The notes under the pieces: model-generated
The model's input: only the letters and a program-made list of their open reading frames with translations
Database searches by the model: none
What the model was told of the DNA's origin: nothing
Made by a program: the position numbers and the translations under genes
NCBI GenBank assembly: GCA_021845835.1
Contig: JAJZVE010000098.1
Coordinates: forward strand, 1-11,027
Length of the DNA: 11,027 nucleotides
Direction of reading: 5' to 3'
Source of the DNA: Pseudomonadota bacterium
Lineage (GTDB): Bacteria > Pseudomonadota > Alphaproteobacteria > Acetobacterales > Acetobacteraceae
Shown here: in pieces, positions 83 to 11,027 of the stretch
How the letters are laid out: every line of letters starts with the position of its first letter
Numbering within the stretch: the stretch's first letter is position 1

Positions 83-1198
83 ATGCCGGAGGAAAAGACA
101 GAACTGCCGATCGGGCAGTACTTGCCGACCATAAGGGAAAGTGGCGCCCGGTCGCATACGTTCTTCGACGGCGCCTCTCTGCGTCGCAGCAAGCCATTCT
201 ACGCCAATGCCATTGACACGAACTTGGCGCCGTCAGGGCACGAATTTACTGACCTTTCGTTCAGGACCTACAACGCGTCGCCCATGTTTTCGGTGGCTCT
301 AGAGGGCGCGTCTGTCATCGGCACAGAGGGCTTGGTCCTGCATAATGGAAAGCTGATCAGCGATACGGTCCACTATGTCCCCGTGTGGGAAGAAGGGGTC
401 TTGGCCGAGAGGGTGGACCTACCGCGTAGCGTGCTTTTCAGGCGCAATGTGCCGCTGCCGGGCAGGAGGCTTGAGGGGGAACACTTCGTCGGGTTCGTTG
501 GAGCTTGGCGCAATCACGCGCACTGGCTGACGGACTGCGTTCCTCGGATATACCTGTACAACCGCCTGAAGGAAATTTCCCCGACCGTCCGCCTTCTGCT
601 CCCTACGTTCGAGGAGGGCGGCCCTCAGTGGCGCACCTTGCAACTGCTTGGGGTAGATGACAGCCAGATCACATGGCTCGATGTCGGTCAGGTTGTGTCG
701 GCAGGCACCCTATGGTGCGCGCCCGGTATCGACTTGTGGAGACCGCCAATGCTGTGCCGGATCGCCGCCGAGGCGTTGTCTGGTGGCCTCCCAGTTCGCG
801 ACGGCTACGAGCGGATATACATCCGTCGTCCAGGCGGCCGCCGCGTGGCGAATTTTGCCGAGATTGAAACGCCGCTGCGCGACCGTGGATTCCGCGTGGT
901 GTCCTTCGAGGGCATGACGCTGGACGAGCAAATTTCGATTATGCGCGGCGCGCGCCACGTCATCGGTGAGCATGGCGCTGGTGTTGCCAATGTCATGTTC
1001 TGCCGCCCTGGCGCGCGGCTGCTGGAGATGTTCAATCCGTTTGGGGCACAGCCGGCGCACTGGTCGCTGGCGTCGGTCTGCGACGTGGGTTACGGCTACC
1101 TAATAGGCGATCACGCAGGCGGCCAACTGCACGGCAACTCGGATTACATCGTGCCGCCGGACAGGCTCACGGAATCTGTAGGCGCCTTGCTCGCGTAG
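83..1198 (+). CDS. Glycosyltransferase family 61 protein (DUF563-type), possibly 5'-partial
   Basis: Likely transfers a sugar onto a surface polysaccharide from the cytoplasmic side; donor and acceptor cannot be read from sequence. From the ATG at 83 it is 371 aa. The family signature is visible: an N-terminal strand-rich part with GTEGLVLHNGKLISD (about 80-94), the motif NHAHWLTDCVPRIYLY (144-159), YIRRPGGRR (246-254), and the C-terminal block from GFRVVSFEGMTL to IGEHGAGVANVMF (269-306), ending ARLLEMFNP. GT61 proteins are usually 350-450 aa, so the core is complete. The start is uncertain: the frame has no stop back to position 2, adding 27 residues, and the ribosome-binding site before 83 is weak (GGCGGA). 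The true start may lie outside the window. By eye it uses more A/T-ending codons than the downstream genes, hinting at a different origin. No signal peptide or membrane segment is evident. Confidence 0.8.
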   Translation: MPEEKTELPIGQYLPTIRESGARSHTFFDGASLRRSKPFYANAIDTNLAPSGHEFTDLSFRTYNASPMFSVALEGASVIGTEGLVLHNGKLISDTVHYVPVWEEGVLAERVDLPRSVLFRRNVPLPGRRLEGEHFVGFVGAWRNHAHWLTDCVPRIYLYNRLKEISPTVRLLLPTFEEGGPQWRTLQLLGVDDSQITWLDVGQVVSAGTLWCAPGIDLWRPPMLCRIAAEALSGGLPVRDGYERIYIRRPGGRRVANFAEIETPLRDRGFRVVSFEGMTLDEQISIMRGARHVIGEHGAGVANVMFCRPGARLLEMFNPFGAQPAHWSLASVCDVGYGYLIGDHAGGQLHGNSDYIVPPDRLTESVGALLA

Positions 1199-1418: not shown

Positions 1419-1913
1419 CTATTGCAGCAGATGCCGGACATCGGCGAGCGTGATCATGAGCGTCATGGGGTCCGCCGGCGACGGCTCGAAGCCGAGGGCG
1501 AGATAGAAGGCCCTGGCCTGTTCCGAGATCGCATGCACGACGATGCCGCGGATGCCGACCGTGTCGGCCGCATGGGCGACGCGCAGCGCGCCGTCGCGAA
1601 ACAGCGCGCGGCCGAGGCCTCTGCCCTGCTGCGCGCGGTCGATCGCCAGCCGGCCGAGCACCGCGACCGGGATCGGGTTCGGCATGTTGCGGCGGAAGCG
1701 GCCGACGCTGCTGTCCACGGTGATCGCGCCGGAGGCCAGCGCATAGTAGCCGACCACCTTGTGGCCGTCAGCGACGACGAAGGTGCGGGACGCGCCGCTC
1801 ACCTGGTTGGCGCGCGCGCGGCGCTTGAGCCAGTCGTCCAGCGACGCGACACCCGACAAGAAATCGTTGAGTTCATGCGCCTCGGCGAGCGGCTCAGGCC
1901 GCGACAGCGGCAC
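1419..1913 (-). CDS. GNAT-family acetyltransferase toxin of a type II toxin-antitoxin pair (TacT/AtaT-like)
   Basis: Members of this family acetylate the amino acid of charged aminoacyl-tRNA using acetyl-CoA and so stop translation; the antitoxin encoded just upstream neutralises them. The 164-aa product begins MPLSRPEPLAEAHELNDFLSG, with DDWLKRRARAN (26-36) matching the usual family N-terminus. The acetyl-CoA loop is QQGRGLG (95-101), preceded by PIPVAVLGRLAID (81-92). Tyr137 in EQARAFYLALGF (131-142) sits where the catalytic Tyr of TacT-type toxins lies. Start choice: a GTG at 1913 two bases after the antitoxin TAG, with GGGA six bases upstream, gives the normal family length (about 160-170 aa). 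The frame continues upstream without a stop, but that stretch overlaps the antitoxin and looks like an arginine-rich shadow. The catalytic elements appear intact. The exact tRNA target cannot be told. Confidence 0.88.
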   Translation of the reverse strand: MPLSRPEPLAEAHELNDFLSGVASLDDWLKRRARANQVSGASRTFVVADGHKVVGYYALASGAITVDSSVGRFRRNMPNPIPVAVLGRLAIDRAQQGRGLGRALFRDGALRVAHAADTVGIRGIVVHAISEQARAFYLALGFEPSPADPMTLMITLADVRHLLQ

Positions 1914-1915
1914 CG

Positions 1916-2197
1916 CTATTCCCAGGGCGGGACGGCGTGCATGGTGCGCCGCAGGCGGTCGTTCGGCTTCGGCGGCTCGTCGAGCCGTGCGAGAAATTCG
2001 GCATACGCCGCCGGGCTGACCGCCAACATGGTGCGATCGAGCAAGGCCTCTTCCGCGGCGCGGCGCGCGGCCTCGAGTACGAAATCCGTGCGGTTCTTGC
2101 CGGTGAGCGTGGCGGCCCGGTCGATCAGGCCGCGCTCTTCCGGTTTGATGCGCAGGTTGAGGGTGTCGCGGCGCGAGGTTGCCTTCGGCTTCGTCAT
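1916..2197 (-). CDS. DUF1778 ribbon-helix-helix antitoxin (TacA-like)
   Basis: This 93-aa protein is the antitoxin partner of the GNAT toxin. Residues 10-50 (RDTLNLRIKPEERGLIDRAA, then TGKNRTDFVLEAARRAAEEA) form the ribbon-helix-helix DNA-binding domain typical of DUF1778. The C-terminal part (about 58-93, with SPAAYAEFLARLDEPPKPND) is the segment that in this family wraps the toxin and blocks acetyl-CoA binding. Start choice: ATG at 2197 has GGAG (2207-2204) six bases upstream. A TTG twelve bases further up would overlap that Shine-Dalgarno sequence and is unlikely. The toxin follows with a 2-nt gap, so the two are probably translationally coupled. In this family the antitoxin, or its complex with the toxin, represses the shared promoter, and a matching palindrome lies just upstream. 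Confidence 0.9.
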   Translation of the reverse strand: MTKPKATSRRDTLNLRIKPEERGLIDRAATLTGKNRTDFVLEAARRAAEEALLDRTMLAVSPAAYAEFLARLDEPPKPNDRLRRTMHAVPPWE

Positions 2198-2217
2198 GGT
2201 GCTCTCCAATCTCGCTC

Positions 2218-2246
2218 ATCATAGCGCAGCGTAGTGTCATTGTCAT
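2218..2246 (-). promoter_or_regulatory. Sigma70-type promoter of the toxin-antitoxin operon
   Basis: Reading the minus strand, ATGACA (2246-2241; 5 of 6 to TTGACA) and TATGAT (2223-2218; 5 of 6 to TATAAT) are separated by exactly 17 bp. Transcription would start near 2211, giving a 5' leader of roughly 14 nt that ends in the GGAG before the antitoxin ATG. This is the best promoter match I found in the window, in the position expected for the operon. Confidence 0.7.
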
Positions 2247-2250
2247 TACG
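2230..2250. promoter_or_regulatory. Candidate antitoxin operator (imperfect palindrome over the -35)
   Basis: CGTAGTGTCA (2230-2239) and TGTCATTACG (2241-2250) are inverted copies matching at 8 of 10 positions around a central T. The region also holds a tandem TGTCAT-TGTCAT (2235-2246). It covers the predicted -35 box, where ribbon-helix-helix antitoxins normally bind to autoregulate. The operator role is inferred. Confidence 0.55.
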
Positions 2251-2284
2251 TCTGTTCTGAGCGATGGCAGGCGGTTGGGCGGCC

Positions 2285-2402
2285 AGGGGCCTTTGCCGGC
2301 GCAGGCCGGCATCCAGGCGAACCGCGCAAAATTCCGCGCGCCGCGCCTGGACCTCCGCTTTCGCAGAGGTGACGGAGGCGGAGGTGACGGCGAGAGGCCC
2401 CT
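2285..2402. repeat. Second REP-like composite element, different family
   Basis: Nested inverted repeats make a doublet. The outer pair is AGGGGCC (2285-2291) and GGCCCCT (2396-2402). A left hairpin TGCCGGC/GCCGGCA (2294-2311, loop GCAG) is followed by TCCAGGCG (2312-2319). This is mirrored by CGCCTGGA (2344-2351) and a right hairpin ACCTCCGC/GCAGAGGT (2351-2370, one mismatch). The right half resembles the widespread bacterial intergenic motif CTGGATTCCCGCTTTCGCGG. It lies between the 3' end of the homocysteine synthase fusion gene and the toxin-antitoxin promoter, where its hairpins could limit read-through. Confidence 0.55.
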
Positions 2403-2433: not shown

Positions 2434-4245
2434 TCAGGTGTCCAGCCCGCGCAGCGCCTCGTCCAGATCGCGGATCAGATCGGCCGCCGTCTCCAGCCCG
2501 ATCGACAGCCGCACCACGTCCGGCCCGGCGCCGGCGGCGCGCTGCTGTTCCTCCGTCAACTGCCGGTGCGTCGTGCTGGCCGGGTGCAGGATCAGGCTGC
2601 GCGTGTCGCCGACATTGGCGAGGTGCGAAAACAGCCGCACGCGCTCCATCAGCTTCGTCCCCGCCGCGTAGCCGCCTTTCAGCCCGAAGGTGAACACCGA
2701 TCCCGGCCCAAGCGGCAGGTATTTCTGGGCCAGCGCATGATAAGGGCTATCCGTCAGCCCGGCATAGGACACCCATGCCACCTTGTCATGCCGCGCCAGG
2801 AAGTCCGCCACCGCCTGCGCGTTGGCGACGTGGCGTTCCATGCGCAGCGGCAGCGTCTCGATGCCGGTCAGGATCAGCCAGGCGTTCATCGGTGCCAGCG
2901 TCGGCCCGAAATCGCGCAGCGCAACCGCGCGCGCCTTGGTGGTGAAGGCGAAGTCGCCGAAATTCTCGTAGAAGCGCAGGCCGTGATAGGCCGGCTCCGG
3001 CTCGGTCAGCGCCGGGAAGCGGTTGCCCTGCGACCAGTCGAATTTTCCGGATTCGACGATGATGCCGCCGAGGGAGTTGCCGTGTCCCCCGAGGAACTTC
3101 GTCAGCGAATGCAGCACGAGGTCGGCGCCCCATTCGATCGGGCGGCACAGGTACGGCGAGGCCAGCGTGTTGTCCACGACGAACGGAATGCCCGCCTCGT
3201 GCGCGATCGCGGCGACGGCCTCCAGATCGACCACGACGCCGCCGGGATTGGCGAGGCTTTCGACGAAGATCGCCTTGCAGCGCGGCGTCAGCGCGCGGCG
3301 GAAATTCTCCGGCTCGCGCGGATCGACGAAATGGCAGTGCCAGCCGAGCTTCGGGAAGGACTGCCCGAACTGCGTCAGGCTGCCGCCATAGAGGTTGCGC
3401 GAGGCGACGAACTCGTCGCCGGGTTGCAGCAGCGTGAAGAAGGCGAGGAACTGCGCGGCATGGCCGGAGGCGGCAGCCACCGCGGCGCGCCCGCCCTCCA
3501 GCGCCGCCACGCGCTCCTCCAGCACCGCAACGGTGGGATTGGACAGCCGCGTATAGACGTGGCCGAAGCTGTGCAGATTGAACAGCGAGGCCGCCTGGTC
3601 CACGTCGTCGAACACGTAGGACGTGGTCTGGTAGATCGGCGTGGTGCGCGCGCCGGTGGCCAGCTCGGGCGCCGCGCCGGCATGGATGGCGCGCGTCTCG
3701 AAGCCGAGGTCCGCGCTGCGCAGCGGCGACGGCCGCGGTCGCGCGGGGCGCGGCTGCGGCGGCTCGGGCGCGCGGTTGCGCACCAGGCCGGAGTTGACGC
3801 CGTACCACGACAGCTCGCCGCCGAGCCGGCCGAACTCGATCTTCAGGCAGCGGTCCATGACCACTTCGATCCCGGCCGCCTCGGCCTGCGCCGCCGCCGC
3901 GTCGTTGCGGATGCCGAGCTGCATCCACACCACCCTGGCGCCGATCGCGATCGCGTCGTCCACGATCGGCCCGACATGCTCCGCGGCGCGGAAGATGTCC
4001 ACCAGATCGACCCGCTCCGGAATGTCGCGCAGCGTCGCGTACACGGTCTCGCCGAGCAGGGTCTGCCCCGCCAGGCCGGGATTGACCGGGATGGTGCGGT
4101 AGCCCTTGGTCTGCAGGTAGCGCATGACGAAGGTGCTCGGCCGGTTCCGGTTGGCCGAGGCGCCGACCACCGCAATGGTGTGGACGCGCTGCAGGATGCT
4201 GCGGAGCCTGGCATCCGAATAGACGAGCGGCTGGATCGCGTCCAT
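2434..4245 (-). CDS. Fusion protein: CoA-binding domain + O-acetylhomoserine sulfhydrylase (homocysteine synthase)
   Basis: The C-terminal enzyme uses pyridoxal phosphate to make homocysteine from O-acetylhomoserine and sulfide (direct sulfhydrylation, methionine pathway, cytoplasmic). The 603 aa divide into: residues 1-150, a YccU-type CoA-binding Rossmann domain with AVVGASANRNRPS (25-37) and the family end motif VMDRCLKIEFGRL (129-141); a proline/arginine-rich linker (about 157-176); and residues 177-603, a Cys/Met-metabolism PLP enzyme starting LGFETRAIHAG. Enzyme landmarks are YTRLSNPT (231-238, phosphate binding), VVDNT with Asp358, the PLP lysine Lys383 in HSLTKFLGGHGNS, and VGDTRSLILHPASTTH (545-560) with Arg549 for the substrate carboxylate. 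The start at ATG 4245 is set by GGAGG five bases upstream. The frame stays open further upstream, but that stretch is antisense to the hydrolase gene. These two domains are usually separate neighbouring genes in alphaproteobacteria. Methionine gamma-lyase or O-succinylhomoserine specificity is not excluded. Confidence 0.9.
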   Translation of the reverse strand: MDAIQPLVYSDARLRSILQRVHTIAVVGASANRNRPSTFVMRYLQTKGYRTIPVNPGLAGQTLLGETVYATLRDIPERVDLVDIFRAAEHVGPIVDDAIAIGARVVWMQLGIRNDAAAAQAEAAGIEVVMDRCLKIEFGRLGGELSWYGVNSGLVRNRAPEPPQPRPARPRPSPLRSADLGFETRAIHAGAAPELATGARTTPIYQTTSYVFDDVDQAASLFNLHSFGHVYTRLSNPTVAVLEERVAALEGGRAAVAAASGHAAQFLAFFTLLQPGDEFVASRNLYGGSLTQFGQSFPKLGWHCHFVDPREPENFRRALTPRCKAIFVESLANPGGVVVDLEAVAAIAHEAGIPFVVDNTLASPYLCRPIEWGADLVLHSLTKFLGGHGNSLGGIIVESGKFDWSQGNRFPALTEPEPAYHGLRFYENFGDFAFTTKARAVALRDFGPTLAPMNAWLILTGIETLPLRMERHVANAQAVADFLARHDKVAWVSYAGLTDSPYHALAQKYLPLGPGSVFTFGLKGGYAAGTKLMERVRLFSHLANVGDTRSLILHPASTTHRQLTEEQQRAAGAGPDVVRLSIGLETAADLIRDLDEALRGLDT

Positions 4246-4368
4246 GCTGGCCTCCGTCGCTGGCGGGACGGCGCATCTGGCCCCGGTTGCGCGGCCGGCG
4301 CAAGCCGGGGCTTTGCCGCGCGCGGCGCGGACGGTAAGAAGCCGCAGGAGGCCAGGGCAGCGGACCGC
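4246..4368. promoter_or_regulatory. Divergent intergenic region with a long imperfect inverted repeat
   Basis: This 123-bp gap separates the minus-strand fusion gene from the + strand hydrolase and must carry promoters for at least the former. GCCCCGGTTGCGC (4280-4292) and GCGCAAGCCGGGGC (4298-4311) pair over 13 bp with one bulged base around a 5-nt loop. This could be a regulator site, an attenuator-like hairpin or another REP-type repeat. GGAGG at 4255-4251 (minus strand) is the Shine-Dalgarno for the fusion gene. No convincing -10 box is visible on either strand; TTGCCG with 16 bp to TAAGAA (4314-4341) on the + strand is only a weak candidate. Confidence 0.45.
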
Positions 4369-5343
4369 ATGGACGGCGACATCATCCACGACGGCGCGCA
4401 TTATCGCGTGGTCCACCGGCGCGTGAGCGACGATCCGCTCACCGTGGTGTATTTCGAATCGTTGCTGCCCGAGCCGTCGCGCGAGGCACCGCCGGCCGCG
4501 CAGGATTTCTTCGTGCGCCGCGGCGTCAACTTCATCGGCGTCAGGCCGGCCCGCAACGACTGGTACCAGCAGGACGAGATTTTCGCCGCCATCGCCGCCA
4601 TCCGCGCCGCCACGCCGGGCGGGCGGCTGGCCGGCTATGGCGGCAGCATGGGCGCCTACGCCGCCATCAACTTCGCCAGCGATCTTGGCCTGGCGACGCT
4701 GCTCGCGATCTGCCCGCAATTCTCGATCCGGCCGGAAAAGGCGCCGTTCGAACGCCGCTGGCTGGACGAGGCGGCAGTGATCGCCTTTCGCCACGACCGG
4801 ATCGAGGCGCCGCCGCGCCTCAGCCACGGCTTCATCATGTTCGACCCGCTCACCGACGACCGGCTGCATGCGGCTGCGATCCTGGCGCATCACGACCTGA
4901 CGCCGTTGCCGATCCGGTTCACCGGCCACGAGCAACTGCGCTTCCTGACGCAGACCGGCATCGCCGGGGACGTGATCGTCGGTCTGCTGCGCGGCGACAT
5001 CGACGGGCCCGGCGTGGTGCGGCGGGTGCGCACGGCGCGGCGCGACAGCAACATCGTCTGGCACGGCGTCGCCAAGCTGAAGCTGCGGCGCGGCGAAATC
5101 GCGGCGGCGGCGCGGGCGATGGACCGCGCCGAGGCCTCGCCGCTGCCCGATCCGTTCGATGCTGCCGTCACGCGCGGCAAGATCCTGCGCCGGCTCGGCC
5201 GCGCGGCGGAGGCGGAGGCGCTGGTCGCGGCCTTCCTCGCCGACCCGGCCACCGCCCCGCTCGCCCGCTGGCGGCTGGATCATTGGCGCGCGAGCGATCC
5301 GCCGCTGCCGTGGTGGCGCCGCCTGCTGGACCGGGTGGCATGA
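4369..5343 (+). CDS. Alpha/beta-hydrolase-like protein with helical-repeat (TPR-like) C-terminus
   Basis: A 324-aa protein that I cannot assign to a named family. Residues 20-200 look like an alpha/beta hydrolase: VNFIGVRPARNDWYQQDEI (53-71), then the nucleophile elbow GYGGSMGAYAAI with Ser93, an acidic residue in FDPLTDD (Asp159), and GHEQLRF with His187, together a plausible Ser-Asp-His triad. Residues about 225-310 are alanine/arginine-rich paired helices (VAKLKLRRGEIAAAARAMDRAE; GKILRRLGRAAEAEALVAAF), resembling TPR. There is no signal peptide, so it is probably cytoplasmic. It is the first gene of the polysaccharide run and its stop overlaps the next start, so an esterase or acyl-transfer role on a glycan or lipid intermediate is an inference. 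ATG 4369 has a poorly placed Shine-Dalgarno: AGGAGG at 4346-4351 is 17 nt upstream. MDGDIIHDGAHYRVVHRR reads as a natural N-terminus, and no better in-frame start lies between. Confidence 0.72.
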   Translation: MDGDIIHDGAHYRVVHRRVSDDPLTVVYFESLLPEPSREAPPAAQDFFVRRGVNFIGVRPARNDWYQQDEIFAAIAAIRAATPGGRLAGYGGSMGAYAAINFASDLGLATLLAICPQFSIRPEKAPFERRWLDEAAVIAFRHDRIEAPPRLSHGFIMFDPLTDDRLHAAAILAHHDLTPLPIRFTGHEQLRFLTQTGIAGDVIVGLLRGDIDGPGVVRRVRTARRDSNIVWHGVAKLKLRRGEIAAAARAMDRAEASPLPDPFDAAVTRGKILRRLGRAAEAEALVAAFLADPATAPLARWRLDHWRASDPPLPWWRRLLDRVA

Positions 5344-7094
5344 ACGGCGCCAACCCGAGCGCGAGCGCGGCGCTGATCCTGGACGCCTATGCGGACTGGG
5401 TGGCCGCGCACGACACGCTGACCGACGCCGACCGCGCGGCGATCCGGCAGCACATGCAGGGCCTGCCGTTCCGGCCGCTGTTCTCGCTGCTGCTGCCGCT
5501 GGGGTTTGGCGTGGCCGGCGGCGCGCGCGACACGCTCCGCTCGGTGCGGGCGCAGCTGTACGGGCGCTGGGAACTCTGCGTCGCCGGCACGGACCCGGTG
5601 GACGACGATACCATCGCCGCCGCGGCGGCGGCGGACCCGCGCATCCGGCGCCTGCCGCGGCATGCGTTCGCGGATGTGGCGGACGCGGCGAACGCCACCC
5701 TTGCGGTCGCGGAGGGGGCGTACGCGGCGATCCTGCTGCCCGGTGAGCAACTGGCCGAGCGGGCGCTGTACGAAATCGCCGTCGCCCTCGGCGCGCATCC
5801 CGGGACCGAGCTGCTCTACACCGACGAGGACGTGATGGATTGGGCGGGGCAGCGTTCGGCCCCGCTGCTCAAGGCCGGCTGGGACCCGGACCTGCTGCTG
5901 GCGCAGGATTGCGTCGGCGGCCTCGCGGTCTGGCACCTGCCGGGGCTGCAGACGGCGCACGGGCTGCGGTCGGGGTTCGGGCGGGCGGCGGCCTACGACC
6001 TGGCGCTGCGCGCGACCGCGACCATGCTGCCCGACCGCATCCGCCATCTGCCCGCGGTACTGCTGCATCGGCCGCCGAGCGCCGGGCGCAGCCTGCGCGA
6101 CCGCATGCTCGGCGACGACAACGAGGCGCTGCGGCGGGCGGTGCGGGAACGGCTGGGCGATGCCGCCGAAATCGCGCCGGCGCCGCTGTGGCCGTCGGCC
6201 AATCGCGTGACGTGGCGCCTGCCCGATCCGGCACCGCTGGTTTCCGTCATCATCCCGACGCGCGACCGCGCCGCGCTGCTGGTGCCGTGCGCCTGGGGCG
6301 TGCTGCAGCGCACGGACTATCCGTCGCTGGAGCTGCTGATCGTGGACAACGACAGCCGCGAGGAATTGACGGCGAGGGCGCTGCGCGACCTGGAAACCGA
6401 TGCGCGCGTGCGCATCCTGCGCCATCCCGGCCCGTTCAACTTCGCCGCCATCAACAATGCCGCGGTGGAGCAGGCGCGCGGCGAGATCGTGGTGCTGCTC
6501 AACAATGATGTCGAGGTCATGCATCCCGGCTGGCTGCGCGAGCTGGTCAGCCACGCGGTGCGGCCCGATGTCGGCGCGGTCGGCGCCAAGCTGCTGTACG
6601 CCGACGGCACGCTGCAGCACGGCGGCATCGTGTTCGGGCCCGGACTCGCGGCGACACACATCCTGCGCCAGGCGGCGCGCACGGACCCCGGCTACAACGG
6701 GCAACTCGCACTGACGCGCACGCTGTTCGCGGTCACCGGTGCCTGCCTCGCGATACGGCGGAGCGTGTTTCGCGAGGCAGGCGGCCTGAACGCCGACCGC
6801 TTCGCGATTGCCTTCAATGATCTCGATTTCTGCCTGCGGCTCGGCGAGCTTGGCTACCGCATCGTCTGGACGCCGTTCGCGGAGCTGTTCCACCTGGAGA
6901 GCGCGACCCGCGGCCTGCCCGAAACGCCGGAGGAAATCGCACAGGAGCAGCGCGAGGTGACCAATCTCTGGCATAGCTGGCGCCATGTCTTCGCGAGCGA
7001 CCCCTACCACAACATCAACCTGAGCTGCGCCTGGAGGGAGCCGCTGCATCTCTGCGCGCCGCGGCGCCGCAAGCCGTGGCAGATGGACACCTGA
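5340..7094 (+). CDS. Two-domain GT2 family glycosyltransferase
   Basis: Transfers sugar from a nucleotide-sugar donor during surface polysaccharide assembly; the specific sugar is unknown. The 584 aa contain an N-terminal GT2-like half (about 45-260) and a complete C-terminal GT2 domain (298-560). The first half has RDTLRSVRAQLYGRWELCVA (63-82) and LLYTDEDVMDWAGQR with the DED at 162-164, then GWDPDLLL; its usual IPxYN-type opening strand is replaced by FSLLLPLGFGV. The second half starts LVSVIIPTRDRA (300-311), then LLIVDNDSRE (332-341), the metal-site segment LLNNDVEVMHPGW (387-398), and FNDLDFCLRLGELGYRIVW (492-510) near the catalytic base. This layout resembles tandem GT2 O-antigen/rhamnan-type transferases. 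The start is ATG 5340, overlapping the hydrolase stop as ATGA and implying translational coupling. The frame also opens 57 nt upstream, inside the hydrolase gene, without support. Confidence 0.88.
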   Translation: MNGANPSASAALILDAYADWVAAHDTLTDADRAAIRQHMQGLPFRPLFSLLLPLGFGVAGGARDTLRSVRAQLYGRWELCVAGTDPVDDDTIAAAAAADPRIRRLPRHAFADVADAANATLAVAEGAYAAILLPGEQLAERALYEIAVALGAHPGTELLYTDEDVMDWAGQRSAPLLKAGWDPDLLLAQDCVGGLAVWHLPGLQTAHGLRSGFGRAAAYDLALRATATMLPDRIRHLPAVLLHRPPSAGRSLRDRMLGDDNEALRRAVRERLGDAAEIAPAPLWPSANRVTWRLPDPAPLVSVIIPTRDRAALLVPCAWGVLQRTDYPSLELLIVDNDSREELTARALRDLETDARVRILRHPGPFNFAAINNAAVEQARGEIVVLLNNDVEVMHPGWLRELVSHAVRPDVGAVGAKLLYADGTLQHGGIVFGPGLAATHILRQAARTDPGYNGQLALTRTLFAVTGACLAIRRSVFREAGGLNADRFAIAFNDLDFCLRLGELGYRIVWTPFAELFHLESATRGLPETPEEIAQEQREVTNLWHSWRHVFASDPYHNINLSCAWREPLHLCAPRRRKPWQMDT

Positions 7095-7096
7095 GC

Positions 7097-10000
7097 ATGG
7101 ACGCACCGAGCGCGATCCCGTCGCCTTCCCCGAACGCGCTGGCACCGCTGCTGGCGCCGGAGATCGGCCCGCTATTCTGGCGTCCGTCGCGCGCCGGCGT
7201 CGAAAGCGCCTGGGCGGGCCATGTGCCGTTCGCGCTGTGGCTGGTGCCGGCGCTGCGTCCGCGGGTCCTGGTCGAACTGGGCACGCATAACGGCGTCTCG
7301 TACTGCGCCTTCTGTGACGCGGTGACGGCGGCGAAGCTCGATACGCGCTGCTACGCCGTCGATACCTGGGAAGGCGACGAGCACGCCGGCTTCTACGGGC
7401 AGATCGTCTATGACGATCTGCGGCGCTTCCACGACCAACGCTTCGGCGCGTTTTCGGAGCTGCTGCGCTGCACGTTCGATGCGGCGCTGGCGTATATCCC
7501 GGACGGCTCGATCGACCTGCTGCATATCGACGGCTGCCACGGCTACGACGCCGTGCGGCATGATTATGAAAGCTGGTTGCCGAAATTGTCGGAGCGTGCC
7601 GTGGTGCTGTTCCACGACACCAACGTGCGCGAGCGCGGCTTCGGTGTATGGCGGCTGTTCACGGAGCTGCGCAAGCGCTACCCGTCGTTCGAGTTCCTGC
7701 ACGAACACGGGCTGGGTGTGCTCGCCGTCGGCCGCGAGGTACCGGAGCCGGTGGCCTCGCTCTGCGCGCTGCGCGATCCGGCGTCCGTCGGCGCCGTACG
7801 CGAACGCTTCAGCCTGCCTGGCGAACGCTGGCGGCTTGAGATCCACGTGCAGCTCCTCGGCAACGAGATCGAGCGGCGTACCCGCCATGCGCAAGAACTG
7901 GCGCGGTCGCGTGACGCGGCCCAGGCGGAAGCGGCGGAATCGGCCCGCATGCGTGCCCGCGCCGCACAGCGTGCCGTGGAGGCGCGCGCCGCGGCAGCCG
8001 GCGCGATGGAGGAAGTCGATCGCCTGCGCGCCCATGTGCACGGGCGCATGGCGGCGCTGGAAGCAGAGGCCGAACGGGGCCGTGCCGCGGTGAACGAGGC
8101 GGCGCGGCTTCGTGTCGAAGTCGCGCGCACGCATGAAGCCTTGCAGCGCACGCGGGCGCTGGAGAGGGAGCTGGCACGTCGCACGGCGGAGAACGCCAGG
8201 CTGCGCGGCTCGATCGCCTGGCGTCTCGGCGCGCCGTTGCGCGGCGCCGCGGCGCATCTGCCCGCACCCGTGCGCCGTCGCGCCCGGCAGGCGGGGCAAC
8301 TCGCGCTCTGGACGGCGCGGATGGAATTGCGCACGCGGCTGCGGCGGCGGGCGCGTCTGCGCGACGAGTTGCAGATGCTGGCGAGATCCGATCTGTTCGA
8401 TCCCGCCTGGTACAGCGCCCGCTACCCGGACGTGGCGGCGTCCGGCATGGACCCGGCGGTGCACTACCTGCTGCACGGCAGGCAGGAGCGCCGCAATCCC
8501 GGTCCGGATTTCGACGCGGCGTACTACCTGGAGCATGCGCCGGATGTCGCCGCGTCCGACATCGATCCGCTGATCCACTACATCCGCGTGGGGGCGGCCG
8601 AGGGGCGGCCGAGTCGTCCTGTGGTTGGTGATGCGGCGCACGCGGCGGACACGACGGTTCCGCTGACAACGCTGCTGTCGCGGCGGCGGATCGCGTTCAT
8701 CTCCGGGGAACCGGACACGCCGGGGCACAGCTATCGCGTGCTGCGCTTTGCTGCCGCAGCCGAGCAGGCAGGGGCGGTGACGACCTGGATGCGTGCCGAG
8801 GAAGTCTCCGCGCGACGGGACGAGATTCTGGCCGCCGACGTGCTGGTGATCTGGCGCGCGACGTGGCCGCAGGTGGCCGGCGCGGTGGCGACGGCGCGGG
8901 AAGGCGGCGCGGCCGTCGTCTATGACCTGGACGACCTGATGCTCGATCCCGACCTAGCGACGCCCGAACTGCTGGACGCGCTGCGCAGCGAGGGCGTGTC
9001 GGAAGAAGATGCGAGAGGTCATTACGGGCGCATCCGGGATGCCGTGATGCAGGCGGACTTCTGCGTCGCCAGCACGGAGGAGCTTGCCTGGCACATCCGC
9101 CGTACCGGCCGCCCTGCGCTGGTGCTGCCCAACGGCTTCGACGACGAGACGCATCGCCGCTCGCGTCGCGCCGCACGAGCGCGACGGCAGACGGCAGGCG
9201 ACGGTTTGCGCCGCATCGGCTACGCCGGCGGATCGCGCACGCATCAGCGCGACTTCGGGCAGATCGCGGACACGCTTGCGCGCATCCTGCGCGAGCGGCC
9301 GGACTGCCGCCTGGTCCTGTTCAGGAGCCGCATCGACGGGCTGCCGATCGTCAACATCGCCGAATATCCGGCGCTTGCCGACGTGATTGCGCAGGTCGAG
9401 TGGCGCGAGTCCGTGCCGATCGCTGATCTCCCGGAGGAGATGGCGCGGTTCGACGTGAACCTCGCGCCACTGGAGGTCGGCAATCCGTTCTGCGAGGCCA
9501 AGAGCGAACTCAAGTATTTCGAGGCGGCGCTGGCTGGTGTCTGCACCGTCGCCTCGCCGACCGGCCCGTTCCGGCGTGCTATCGCGCATGGCGAGACGGG
9601 CTTCCTCGCCGCAAAACCCGAGGAGTGGTACGCGGCGATCACGGCGCTGCTCGATGACTTGACGCTGCGGCGGCGGATGACGGCCGCGGCGCGGCGCGAA
9701 GTGCTGTGGCATTTCGGTCCGGAGCGGCGGCGCGAAATGGTGGCATCGCTGCTCGATCAGGCGAGCGGGGGCCGCGCGGGTGCGCGTGCATTCGCGTTGG
9801 ATGCGCAGCTTGCGATGCGTCCGGACCCAGAGCCGCTGCTGCCGGCGGGCGAAGTGCTGTTCGAGACCGACCAGCTTGGCGACGCCGAGGTGACGGTGGT
9901 TGTGCCGCTGTACAACTACGCACATCATGTGCGCGAAACACTGGACTCGGTCGCGGCCCAGACGTTGCGACAGTTGGACCTCGTTATCCTGGACGACGCA

Positions 10001-10603
10001 TCCACCGATGCCTCGCGCGCCGTAGCGCTGGAATGGGCGGCGCAGCACCGCGAGCGCTTCAATCGCATTGTCGTTATCGGCAATGTCTCGAATGCGGGAC
10101 TCGGTCCGACGCGCAATGCCGGATTCGCAACGGCGGAGACGCCGTATGTGCTGCCGCTCGACGCCGACAACCGGCTGCTTCCGGACTGTTGCATGCGCCT
10201 GCTGCAAGCCGCGGGGAACCGTGGTGCCGCCTTCGTCTATCCGATTCTGCGCGAGTTCGGCGACTCCAACGGACTCGCTAACATTCTGGAGTACGTCCCG
10301 GCGCGACTGGTGGGCGTTCCGTTCATCGACGCGATGGCGCTTGTCTCGGTGGCGGCGTGGCGGGCGGTCGGTGGCTACAGCGACACGCGGCTGGGCTGGG
10401 AGGATTACGAATTCTGGTGCCGCATGGCCGAGCACGGACTGTTTGGTCTGCAGGTGCCAGGCGCGCCGCTGGCGGAATATCGCGTTCACCACGATTCCAT
10501 GCTGCTTTCGGTCACCGAGGACAAGCGGAACAAGCCGCGCGTCATGGCGGACATCACGCGGCGCCATCCCTGGCTGTCGCTGGTGTCGGCAAAGGAAGGG
10601 TAG
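7097..10603 (+). CDS. Multidomain methyltransferase / coiled-coil / GT4 / GT2 protein
   Basis: An 1168-aa protein with three putative enzyme modules. Residues 25-240 form a class I SAM methyltransferase (Methyltransf_24-like): VLVELGTHNGVSY (57-69), CYAVDTWEGDEHAGFY (85-100), SIDLLHIDGCHGYDAVRHDY (138-157), VVLFHDTNVRERGFGV (169-184). Residues about 250-375 are a long Ala/Arg/Glu coiled coil. Residues 434-509 hold two 38-residue FDxxYY...PDVAAS repeats. Residues 530-890 are a GT4-type (GT-B) glycosyltransferase with RIAFISGEPDTPGHSYRV, VVYDLDD (607-613), VLPNGFD (676-682), RIGYAGGSRTHQRDF (706-720), FCEAKSELKYFEAALAGV (798-815) and HGETGFLA. Residues 930-1168 are a GT2 with EVTVVVPLYNYAHHV (931-945), LDDAST (965-970), LPLDADN (1019-1025) and GWEDYEFWCRM (1100-1110). 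It probably builds and methylates part of a surface glycan. The start is ATG 7097, 2 nt after the preceding stop; GTG 7076 in the same frame is the alternative. No membrane segment is evident. Confidence 0.88.
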   Translation: MDAPSAIPSPSPNALAPLLAPEIGPLFWRPSRAGVESAWAGHVPFALWLVPALRPRVLVELGTHNGVSYCAFCDAVTAAKLDTRCYAVDTWEGDEHAGFYGQIVYDDLRRFHDQRFGAFSELLRCTFDAALAYIPDGSIDLLHIDGCHGYDAVRHDYESWLPKLSERAVVLFHDTNVRERGFGVWRLFTELRKRYPSFEFLHEHGLGVLAVGREVPEPVASLCALRDPASVGAVRERFSLPGERWRLEIHVQLLGNEIERRTRHAQELARSRDAAQAEAAESARMRARAAQRAVEARAAAAGAMEEVDRLRAHVHGRMAALEAEAERGRAAVNEAARLRVEVARTHEALQRTRALERELARRTAENARLRGSIAWRLGAPLRGAAAHLPAPVRRRARQAGQLALWTARMELRTRLRRRARLRDELQMLARSDLFDPAWYSARYPDVAASGMDPAVHYLLHGRQERRNPGPDFDAAYYLEHAPDVAASDIDPLIHYIRVGAAEGRPSRPVVGDAAHAADTTVPLTTLLSRRRIAFISGEPDTPGHSYRVLRFAAAAEQAGAVTTWMRAEEVSARRDEILAADVLVIWRATWPQVAGAVATAREGGAAVVYDLDDLMLDPDLATPELLDALRSEGVSEEDARGHYGRIRDAVMQADFCVASTEELAWHIRRTGRPALVLPNGFDDETHRRSRRAARARRQTAGDGLRRIGYAGGSRTHQRDFGQIADTLARILRERPDCRLVLFRSRIDGLPIVNIAEYPALADVIAQVEWRESVPIADLPEEMARFDVNLAPLEVGNPFCEAKSELKYFEAALAGVCTVASPTGPFRRAIAHGETGFLAAKPEEWYAAITALLDDLTLRRRMTAAARREVLWHFGPERRREMVASLLDQASGGRAGARAFALDAQLAMRPDPEPLLPAGEVLFETDQLGDAEVTVVVPLYNYAHHVRETLDSVAAQTLRQLDLVILDDASTDASRAVALEWAAQHRERFNRIVVIGNVSNAGLGPTRNAGFATAETPYVLPLDADNRLLPDCCMRLLQAAGNRGAAFVYPILREFGDSNGLANILEYVPARLVGVPFIDAMALVSVAAWRAVGGYSDTRLGWEDYEFWCRMAEHGLFGLQVPGAPLAEYRVHHDSMLLSVTEDKRNKPRVMADITRRHPWLSLVSAKEG
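8393..8623 (+). repeat. Tandem 38-residue FDxxYY/PDVAAS protein repeats inside the multidomain protein
   Basis: Two units, residues 434-471 and 472-509, share the pattern F-D-x-x-(W/Y)-Y, PDVAAS, x-x-D-P, HY, G and a following R. The first has FDPAWYSARYPDVAASGMDP, the second FDAAYYLEHAPDVAASDIDP. Such units are known as accessory segments in bacterial polysaccharide glycosyltransferases; their function is not established. Here they connect the coiled coil to the GT4 domain. Confidence 0.7.
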
Positions 10604-10604
10604 G

Positions 10605-11027
10605 GTGCCGCAGTTCCATTTCGTCGAGGACTACGAGAAGCTTGTCGCCGAGTTGGTGGCGACGCTGCCGCTGGATGAGGCGATGTCGCGTGCGGTTGGC
10701 GGCGACTTCGAGCGCACTGGCCAGGTGCAGTGCGCGGTGTTGCGCCATTTGGGTCTGCGGGACGGCCAGGCGCTGATCGATCTCGGCTGCGGCAGCGGGC
10801 GCCTGGCGAGCGCGCTCGGTCGGTGCATGGCGGTGGACTATCTCGGCATCGACATTGTGCGGGCGCTGCTGGACTACGCCGCCAGCAAGTCCCCACCGTC
10901 CTATCGTTTCATGCTCAATCGCACGCTGCACATTCCCGCACCCGACGCCAGCGCCGACATGCTTTGCGCTTTCAGCGTGTTCACGCACCTGCTGCACACC
11001 GAGACGTATCTCTATCTGGAGGATATC
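10605..11027 (+). CDS. Class I SAM-dependent methyltransferase, 3'-truncated by the window edge
   Basis: 141 codons are visible, starting MPQFHFVEDYEKLVAELVATL and running off the right edge without a stop. The SAM-binding motif I is ALIDLGCGSGRLASALG, at about residues 54-70. It is followed by YLGIDIVRALLDYAA (motif II region) and DASADMLCAFSVFTHLLHTETYLYLEDI, which matches the Methyltransf_11/25 region after the acidic loop. The start is a GTG one base after the preceding TAG, with GGAAG (10594-10598) six bases upstream, a good Shine-Dalgarno. It is the fourth gene of the tightly spaced run and probably modifies the same glycan, or a lipid or sugar precursor; the acceptor is unknown. Confidence 0.85.
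   Translation, partial: MPQFHFVEDYEKLVAELVATLPLDEAMSRAVGGDFERTGQVQCAVLRHLGLRDGQALIDLGCGSGRLASALGRCMAVDYLGIDIVRALLDYAASKSPPSYRFMLNRTLHIPAPDASADMLCAFSVFTHLLHTETYLYLEDI

What the first reader, a model, noticed from the sequence alone, without database searches (positions are those of the whole stretch)
7097..10603. One 1168-aa polypeptide joins a methyltransferase, a long coiled coil, FDxxYY repeats, a GT-B and a GT-A glycosyltransferase
The frame is uninterrupted and every module keeps recognisable core motifs, so this reads as a true multi-enzyme protein. The order resembles polysaccharide chain-length control systems in which a methyltransferase and polymerising transferases are tied together by a coiled-coil ruler (WbdA/WbdD of E. 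coli O9a, where the ruler and methyltransferase are on WbdD). Here the coiled coil sits on the same chain as both glycosyltransferases. It could polymerise, cap and measure a glycan as one unit. This functional reading is inference.
Basis: partly seen in the sequence, partly recalled or inferred. Interest (0 to 1): 0.72.

Follow-up and report, generated by a model that had tools for sequence, protein, structure and literature searches.

The report
Fused sugar-transferase and methyltransferase surface-glycan enzyme
One long bacterial protein carries two sugar-adding enzymes and, at the far end of a long helical arm, a methyl-adding enzyme; it belongs to a large, little-described family and most likely builds and methylates a cell-surface sugar chain, much as a few known surface-sugar enzymes do.

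Summary
The 1168-aa frame (7097-10603 +) is real: a 94%-identical protein of the same length exists and 52 relatives align with it. Modules: COMT-like, probably metal-dependent O-methyltransferase (residues 1-225), predicted 143-residue helix (228-370), basic segment, two 38-residue FDxxYY repeats, GT-B (GT4-like) and GT-A (GT2) glycosyltransferases. The helix is predicted, but its coiled-coil score in this member does not beat its shuffles; many relatives score strongly. The layout is not unique: WsaE and Klebsiella O7 ORF6 already put a methyltransferase and two glycosyltransferases on one chain, O7 with a coiled coil. Best reading: a membrane-peripheral enzyme that adds two sugars to a surface glycan and methylates it. 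Length control is possible but unproven. For: Wzm/Wzt exporter genes with a cap-binding domain within about 4 kb at 4 of 80 related loci. Against: no such domain found in the genomes of the 8 closest loci; methyltransferase heads swapped, separate or degenerate in other branches. One Acetobacteraceae branch sits beside an RTX-type protein. New variant of a known kind.

The parts
7097..10603 (+). CDS of the 1168-aa multi-enzyme protein (P0001), stop included
7097..7771 (+). Residues 1-225: Methyltransf_24 / COMT-like O-methyltransferase head
7778..8206 (+). Residues 228-370: one long predicted helix (rod), coiled-coil-like in many relatives
   Evidence: AF2; coiled-coil scores; indel lengths, equivocal
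8213..8392 (+). Residues 373-432: basic segment, net charge +11, perhaps membrane-facing (inference)
   Evidence: family median net charge +11 over the 50 of 52 members scored
8393..8623 (+). Residues 433-509: two FDxxYY repeats, period 38
   Evidence: own profile built from 50 proteins including this one; no Pfam family above its cut-off
8678..9811 (+). Residues 528-905: GT-B fold, GT4-like glycosyltransferase
9839..10600 (+). Residues 915-1168: GT-A fold, GT2 glycosyltransferase with DxD (D1022, D1024) and WED (E1102, D1103)
5340..7094 (+). Partner gene: GT2-type glycosyltransferase, 584 aa, 2 bases upstream of the 7097 gene (scanned from 5343)
   Evidence: homologue in all 8 closest loci (partial at the contig end in L018)
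4369..5343 (+). Partner ORF: 324 aa, hydrolase-like GGSMG motif (by eye), TPR match below its cut-off, overlaps the GT2 start (ATGA)
   Evidence: homologue found in 3 of 8 closest loci
10605..11027 (+). Partner gene: Methyltransf_11-type methyltransferase, GTG start 1 base after the stop, cut by the window end
   Evidence: homologue in 8 of 80 loci, the same 8 that are closest by head identity

Best explanation
A cytoplasmic enzyme of surface-glycan assembly, held at the membrane by its basic middle segment. The GT-B and GT-A modules add two sugars in turn to a lipid-linked glycan (repeatedly or once). The N-terminal, probably metal-dependent O-methyltransferase, held away from them by a rod of up to about 20 nm (143 residues at 1.5 angstrom), methylates the same glycan, most likely near its growing end. 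The upstream GT2 enzyme and the downstream methyltransferase act on the same product. Shown by sequence: module identity, conserved motifs, a tight gene row kept in the closest relatives. Inferred: the glycan substrate, the membrane contact, the order of reactions. Length control by the rod is a possible extra, which I put near 0.3.
For: Modules over Pfam cut-offs and folds. Residues E60, G62, D89, D145 kept in 52 of 52 and H148, D174, D1022, D1024, D1103 in 51 of 52. Partner genes nearly touching; GT2 upstream and MT11 downstream in the 8 loci closest by head identity (74-82%, next 67%). Basic segment +11. The best Foldseek match of the head is MeT1, a sugar methyltransferase by recall. FDxxYY repeats co-occur with glycan enzymes, including WsaF domains in 9 of the 120 listed proteins (Pfam names). 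In 4 loci the gene or its core lies near wzm/wzt with Wzt_C.
Against: No sugar, acceptor or linkage is known. The GT-B module lacks the canonical EX7E. The methyltransferase head is not universal: 40 of 80 loci show the HIDGxH motif in the ORF examined (6 of the 80 ORFs are open at the 5' end); other heads match other methyltransferase families (L019, L023, L025) or are degenerate (Acetobacter group). Hydrophobic moment gives no support for membrane binding of the basic segment: the top windows lie elsewhere.
Confidence: 0.6

Rival explanations
1. Polymerase-terminator with a molecular ruler, as in WbdD/WbdA, WsaE or Klebsiella O7 ORF6: the two glycosyltransferases polymerise a repeat, the methyltransferase at the tip of the rod caps chains that reach it, and an ABC exporter (Wzm/Wzt) carries only capped chains.
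For: Same order of parts: terminator at the far end of the rod, glycosyltransferases at the other (PMC11231755 passages). Wzt with Wzt_C within about 4 kb of the gene or its core in L022, L038, L055, L069. Linker length varies from 89 to 335 residues in 52 relatives. Rod indels of 5-30 residues fall on whole helix turns in 22 of 51 and 22 of 50 cases under two gap settings (27% expected, p 0.009 and 0.007).
Against: No Wzt_C in the genomes of the 8 closest loci (0 of 8; 7 of 36 overall; completeness not given, most are MAGs). No kinase family matched, unlike WbdD and ORF6. Coiled-coil score not above shuffles in this protein. Heads degenerate in one branch, and of the 4 Wzt_C loci only two have an intact fused head. 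The indel signal is weak: with a third gap setting 19 of 65 (p 0.38), and the methyltransferase control region shows 7 of 15 (p 0.08) in the first setting; the other control 9 of 29 (p 0.38).
Confidence: 0.3
2. Plain fusion: the rod is only a linker that keeps enzymes of one pathway together, and the methyltransferase decorates internal or branch sugars without limiting length.
For: Head exchanged for other methyltransferase families while the GT4-GT2 core is kept. Head-type domain encoded as a separate gene in L026 and L069, and as a degenerate copy in L038. A Wzt-like ATPase within 10 kb was found by motif in 7 of 80 loci (only 42 of 80 have more than 9 kb held on both sides). All 8 closest genomes carry Wzy_C-family proteins (also 9 of 14 control genomes).
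Against: A long linker with coiled-coil signal is kept in 45 of 52 relatives.
Confidence: 0.4
3. The enzyme serves a secreted RTX-type surface protein: it builds the glycan on it or the polysaccharide that holds it on the cell.
For: In 90 genomes of one family (that of the Acetobacter malorum genome, presumably Acetobacteraceae) 33 carry the GT4-GT2 core, 33 the RTX-type protein, 23 both (Fisher p 1.1e-6, not corrected for kinship); 15 of the 23 pairs lie within 2.2 kb. The RTX-type cluster is in 23 of 80 loci, within 5 kb in 20. A Caulobacter S-layer binds an O-antigen bearing branching 3-O-methyl glucose (PMC6978808 passages).
Against: In the held flanks of the 8 closest loci no such protein is adjacent; 7 of those 8 genomes match its profile elsewhere (best E 1e-29 to 1e-34). 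10 genomes have the RTX-type protein without the core.
Confidence: 0.1
4. Artefact: separate genes joined by a sequencing error.
For: None found.
Against: A same-length 94%-identical protein and many relatives with the same fusion.
Confidence: 0.01

Closest known systems
WsaE of Geobacillus stearothermophilus NRS 2004/3a (S-layer glycan; PMC2943079, passages read)
   Same: N-terminal methyltransferase plus two glycosyltransferase domains on one chain; partner glycosyltransferase (WsaF) encoded in the same cluster.
   Different: wzm/wzt lie next to wsaE and none is among the scanned window ORFs; the word 'coiled' does not occur in that paper; WsaE's sequence was not at hand for a direct comparison.
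ORF6 of the Klebsiella pneumoniae O7 cluster (PMC11231755, passages read)
   Same: N-terminal methyltransferase, central coiled coil, two C-terminal glycosyltransferases; terminator at the far end of the coil.
   Different: ORF6 has a kinase and a predicted carbohydrate-binding domain before the coil and two GT2 modules; here no kinase family matched, the methyltransferase is COMT-like, and the modules are GT4-like plus GT2.
WbdD/WbdA of E. coli O9a (PMC3482155 seen in listings only; facts from PMC11231755 passages)
   Same: Methyltransferase tied to polymerising enzymes by a long coil.
   Different: Two proteins, a kinase-methyltransferase, Wzt with a carbohydrate-binding module.
WbbB of Klebsiella O12 (PMC11231755 passages)
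   Same: Polymerisation and termination on one chain with a coil.
   Different: Terminator is a glycosyltransferase, not a methyltransferase.
MeT1 of Mycobacterium hassiacum (PDB 6g80, 6g7d)
   Different: Listed as a stand-alone protein; its sugar substrate is recalled, not read here.

Membership tests
WbdD/WbdA-type capped-glycan polymerase-terminator | Putative terminating enzyme at the far end of a long helix from the glycosyltransferases | tested here: met
   Order of modules and single helix 228-370 in the AF2 model; termination itself not tested
WbdD/WbdA-type capped-glycan polymerase-terminator | Extended coiled coil | tested here: inconclusive
   Score not above shuffles in this protein; stretch over P 0.5 in 45 of 52 members
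WbdD/WbdA-type capped-glycan polymerase-terminator | Wzt with C-terminal carbohydrate-binding module in the system | tested here: not met
   None among the scanned window ORFs; 0 of 8 closest genomes (completeness not given); present near 4 of 80 more distant loci. The window's own genome is not held, so this is a test on relatives
WbdD and ORF6-O7 methyltransferase-kinases | Kinase domain next to the methyltransferase | tested here: not met
   No kinase family among the 8 Pfam matches; the helix starts at residue 228, right after the methyltransferase
WsaE-type trifunctional enzyme | N-terminal methyltransferase and two glycosyltransferases on one chain | tested here: met
WsaE-type trifunctional enzyme | Rhamnan synthesis and 2-O-methylation of the terminal rhamnose | not testable with these tools
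   needs biochemistry
Methyltransf_24 / COMT-like metal-dependent O-methyltransferase | Pfam match, fold, conserved SAM- and metal-site-like acidic residues | tested here: met
GT4 (GT-B) | GT-B fold and EX7E motif | tested here: inconclusive
GT2 (GT-A) | GT-A fold and DxD | tested here: met
   D1022 and D1024 in 51 of 52

The most novel reading that the evidence does not exclude
A widespread family in which one GT4-GT2 polymerising core is paired, through a rod, with exchangeable terminator heads (COMT-like methyltransferase, other methyltransferases, or a dead methyltransferase that still docks), so that the same machine makes capped, export-coupled glycans in some lineages and, in Acetobacteraceae, the polysaccharide that anchors an RTX-type surface coat.
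Probability: 0.15. Interest if true: 0.7.

Novelty: new variant of a known kind. Interest (0 to 1): 0.42.

Why it matters
The family is large (3041 proteins at E <= 1e-3 among the 7992 candidates scored; many may be partial relatives). My paper searches, which went by words and covered open-licence papers only, brought up no description of it. It offers natural variation in rod length and in the methyltransferase head (intact, swapped, separate, degenerate), which would let the ruler idea be tested in a new system, and it links such enzymes to an RTX-type protein in one family.

Tried and rejected
Rejected: a frameshift or join artefact. Rejected: that the downstream methyltransferase gene is the split-off form of the C-terminal methyltransferase fused in longer relatives; L014 has both. 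Not supported for this clade: a Wzm/Wzt exporter next door. ABC2_membrane proteins occur in all 8 close genomes, but the family also rings in all 14 control genomes. The neighbour ABC gene of L002 is an ABC_membrane-type protein, not Wzt; that of L001 is similar to it. The motif search for ABC ATPases first missed the Wzt signature and was repeated with it. Wzy_C proteins occur in all 8 and in 9 of 14 controls, which does not discriminate. RTX as a general context: mainly one branch. Indel periodicity in the rod: positive in two gap settings, negative in the third, and the methyltransferase control has a similar share (7 of 15) in the first; in all pairs, gaps that are multiples of 7 were 131 of 794 in the rod (113 expected) and 34 of 516 in a control stretch. 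The FDxxYY repeats: no Pfam family above its cut-off; the VIA-align lists barely test that part. Paper searches brought nothing further on WsaE or WbbB (0 papers).

Limits: A1 holds P0001 and 51 of the 120 listed relatives, chosen by hand for coverage and spread. 'The 8 closest loci' are L001-L006, L014 and L018, the 8 of 80 with the highest head identity (74-82%, next 67%); I fixed on them after seeing that they share the gene row. The 33/33/23 table was typed by hand; core carriers are rows that reach the GT4-GT2 part (E <= 4.5e-224), and one search scored at most 7 candidates a genome. RTX-type naming rests on Pfam for 5 of the 25 cluster members. ORFs in loci were called by a simple script; 42 of 80 loci hold more than 9 kb on both sides. 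L001-L080 are the best 80 of 434 confirmed stretches, found through two patterns in the GT-B part only, so the list favours that core.
Full report
What is there. The frame 7097-10603 on the + strand is open from ATG to TAG and gives 1168 residues. It is one of a row of four nearly touching + strand ORFs: a 324-aa ORF (4369-5343), a GT2-type glycosyltransferase (5340-7094), this gene, and a Methyltransf_11-type methyltransferase (10605 onward, cut by the window end). Pfam finds Methyltransf_24 at 59-175, GT4-type domains at 706-878 and Glycos_transf_2 at 933-1059. ARAGORN finds no tRNA in the window.

Is it real. A database search gave a 94%-identical protein of the same length and 3041 proteins at E <= 1e-3 among 7992 scored candidates. 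In an alignment of 52 proteins (identity to P0001 42-94%) key residues are kept: E60, G62, D89, D145 in 52 of 52; H148 and D174 in 51; in the GT-B part N679, H716, K802, K806, E809 in 52; in the GT-A part D1022, D1024 and D1103 in 51. The GT-B part has no canonical EX7E; E800 stands one residue off. In 80 loci from named genome records the GT-B/GT-A tandem is the part most widely held, as expected from how they were found.

The rod. Relatives reach 1.85, and up to 162 residues over P 0.5; 45 of 52 have such a stretch. The part from residue 238 to 434 (rod plus basic segment) is 89 to 335 residues long in the 52. Indels of 5-30 residues in 39 nearest-neighbour pairs fall on whole helix turns in 22 of 51 cases (27% expected, p 0.009) and 22 of 50 (p 0.007) under two gap settings, but in 19 of 65 (p 0.38) under a third; control stretches gave 9 of 29 and, in the methyltransferase itself, 7 of 15 (p 0.08) in the first setting, so the signal is weak and not clearly special to the rod. 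I take it as a helical rod, probably a coiled coil in the family, not proven here. The next 60 residues carry net charge +11, family median +11, range 0 to 16 (50 of 52 scored), which suggests, but does not show, contact with the membrane.

The repeats. Two units of 38 residues. No Pfam family reaches its cut-off. A search with this part alone gave 149 proteins; the 120 listed include GT2, GT4, GT61, sulfotransferase (PF13469, name recalled), RgpF, GH99-like, methyltransferase, WsaF and RTX domains. PF21374 and PF22772 are named WsaF_N and WsaF_C and occur together or alone in 9 of the 120 rows.

Contexts. (a) The window's own type: MT11 homologues occur in 8 of 80 loci, L001-L006, L014 and L018, all with a GT2 homologue too; these are also the 8 with the most similar head. 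(b) Wzt with a Wzt_C domain within about 4 kb of the gene or its core: L022, L038, L055, L069, each with a Wzm-like neighbour (Wzm checked by Pfam in L069 only). L022 and L055 have an intact fused head, L069 an intact separate one, L038 a degenerate copy. By motif 7 of 80 loci have a Wzt-like ATPase within 10 kb. Wzt_C occurs in 7 of 36 genomes searched (6 over the cut-off) and in none of the 8 closest. A paper on Klebsiella O antigens states that in all of the terminated O-polysaccharide examples such a module is attached to Wzt (PMC11231755, passage). (c) An RTX-type protein of about 370-525 aa (two of 25 ORFs shorter, at contig ends): 25 ORFs in 23 of 80 loci, in 20 within 5 kb. In 90 genomes drawn evenly from one family, 23 carry both, 10 the core only, 10 the RTX-type only, 47 neither (p 1.1e-6, uncorrected for kinship); 15 of the 23 are within 2.2 kb. 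Seven of the 8 closest genomes match the RTX-type profile elsewhere; in the five fetched, the proteins are about 57-75% alike, and in G004 the gene lies near ORFs similar to glycosyltransferases.

The head varies. The HIDGxH motif is present in 40 of 80 loci by a pattern search on the ORF examined (6 ORFs are open at the 5' end). L023 has a Methyltransf_11 head, L019 and L025 weaker matches to other methyltransferase families. In the Acetobacter/Commensalibacter group (10 sequences) the head is still homologous (hhalign probability 99.2%), but none of the 10 matches the SAM-site or HIDGxH pattern. L026 and L069 carry a head-type methyltransferase as a separate gene, and L038 a degenerate copy in a separate gene; the fused head of L059 is also degenerate.

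Comparison with the known. WsaE already combines an N-terminal methyltransferase with two glycosyltransferases and is thought to cap a rhamnan by 2-O-methylation; [quoted passage not shown] Klebsiella O7 ORF6 has methyltransferase, kinase, coil and two glycosyltransferases on one chain, and O12 WbbB does polymerisation and termination on one chain (PMC11231755, passages). The present protein resembles these in layout; it is not filed as a member because the kinase was tested and not met, and the Wzt-linked module was tested and not met in its closest relatives.

Verdict. The architecture is real and the functional class (surface-glycan assembly with sugar methylation) is likely. The ruler reading is one of two live options. 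It is a new variant of a known kind, from a large family for which the paper searches named above brought up no function.

Noticed in passing
window 8393-8623 (residues 433-509): FDxxYY repeat, period 38, with no Pfam family above cut-off, spread over many glycan-enzyme architectures and an RTX protein; 13 copies by a simple pattern in P0122.
   Followed up: partly
L023 12290-13834, L060 8220-9638 and 21 other loci: RTX-type protein of about 370-525 aa, in 20 of 80 loci within 5 kb of the related gene.
   Followed up: partly
L060, L063 and relatives, first 200 residues of the related protein: Degenerate methyltransferase head with the SAM-site and HIDG stretches lost but the H..GLGVL end kept in some.
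   Followed up: partly
window 1419-2312 (-): GNAT acetyltransferase (in ORF 1419-2312) overlapped by a 97-aa ORF (1916-2209) that looks like a DUF1778-type antitoxin: perhaps a TacA/TacT-like toxin-antitoxin pair (names recalled; the small ORF was not scanned).
   Followed up: no
window 2434-5283 (-): CoA-binding domain and O-acetylhomoserine sulfhydrylase in one frame; a similar gene stands near the related operon in L001-L003, L005, L006, L014.
   Followed up: partly
window 83-1198 (+): GT61 glycosyltransferase, apart from the row of four.
   Followed up: no
P0124: 1672-aa protein (named partial by its source) that joins a methyltransferase, FDxxYY repeats, WsaF_N/WsaF_C and GT2 on one chain.
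   Followed up: no
L048 and L062: RTX-type protein and an ABC exporter within 7 kb of the related gene; in L048 Pfam shows Peptidase_C39 on the exporter and a HlyD-family protein after it.
   Followed up: no
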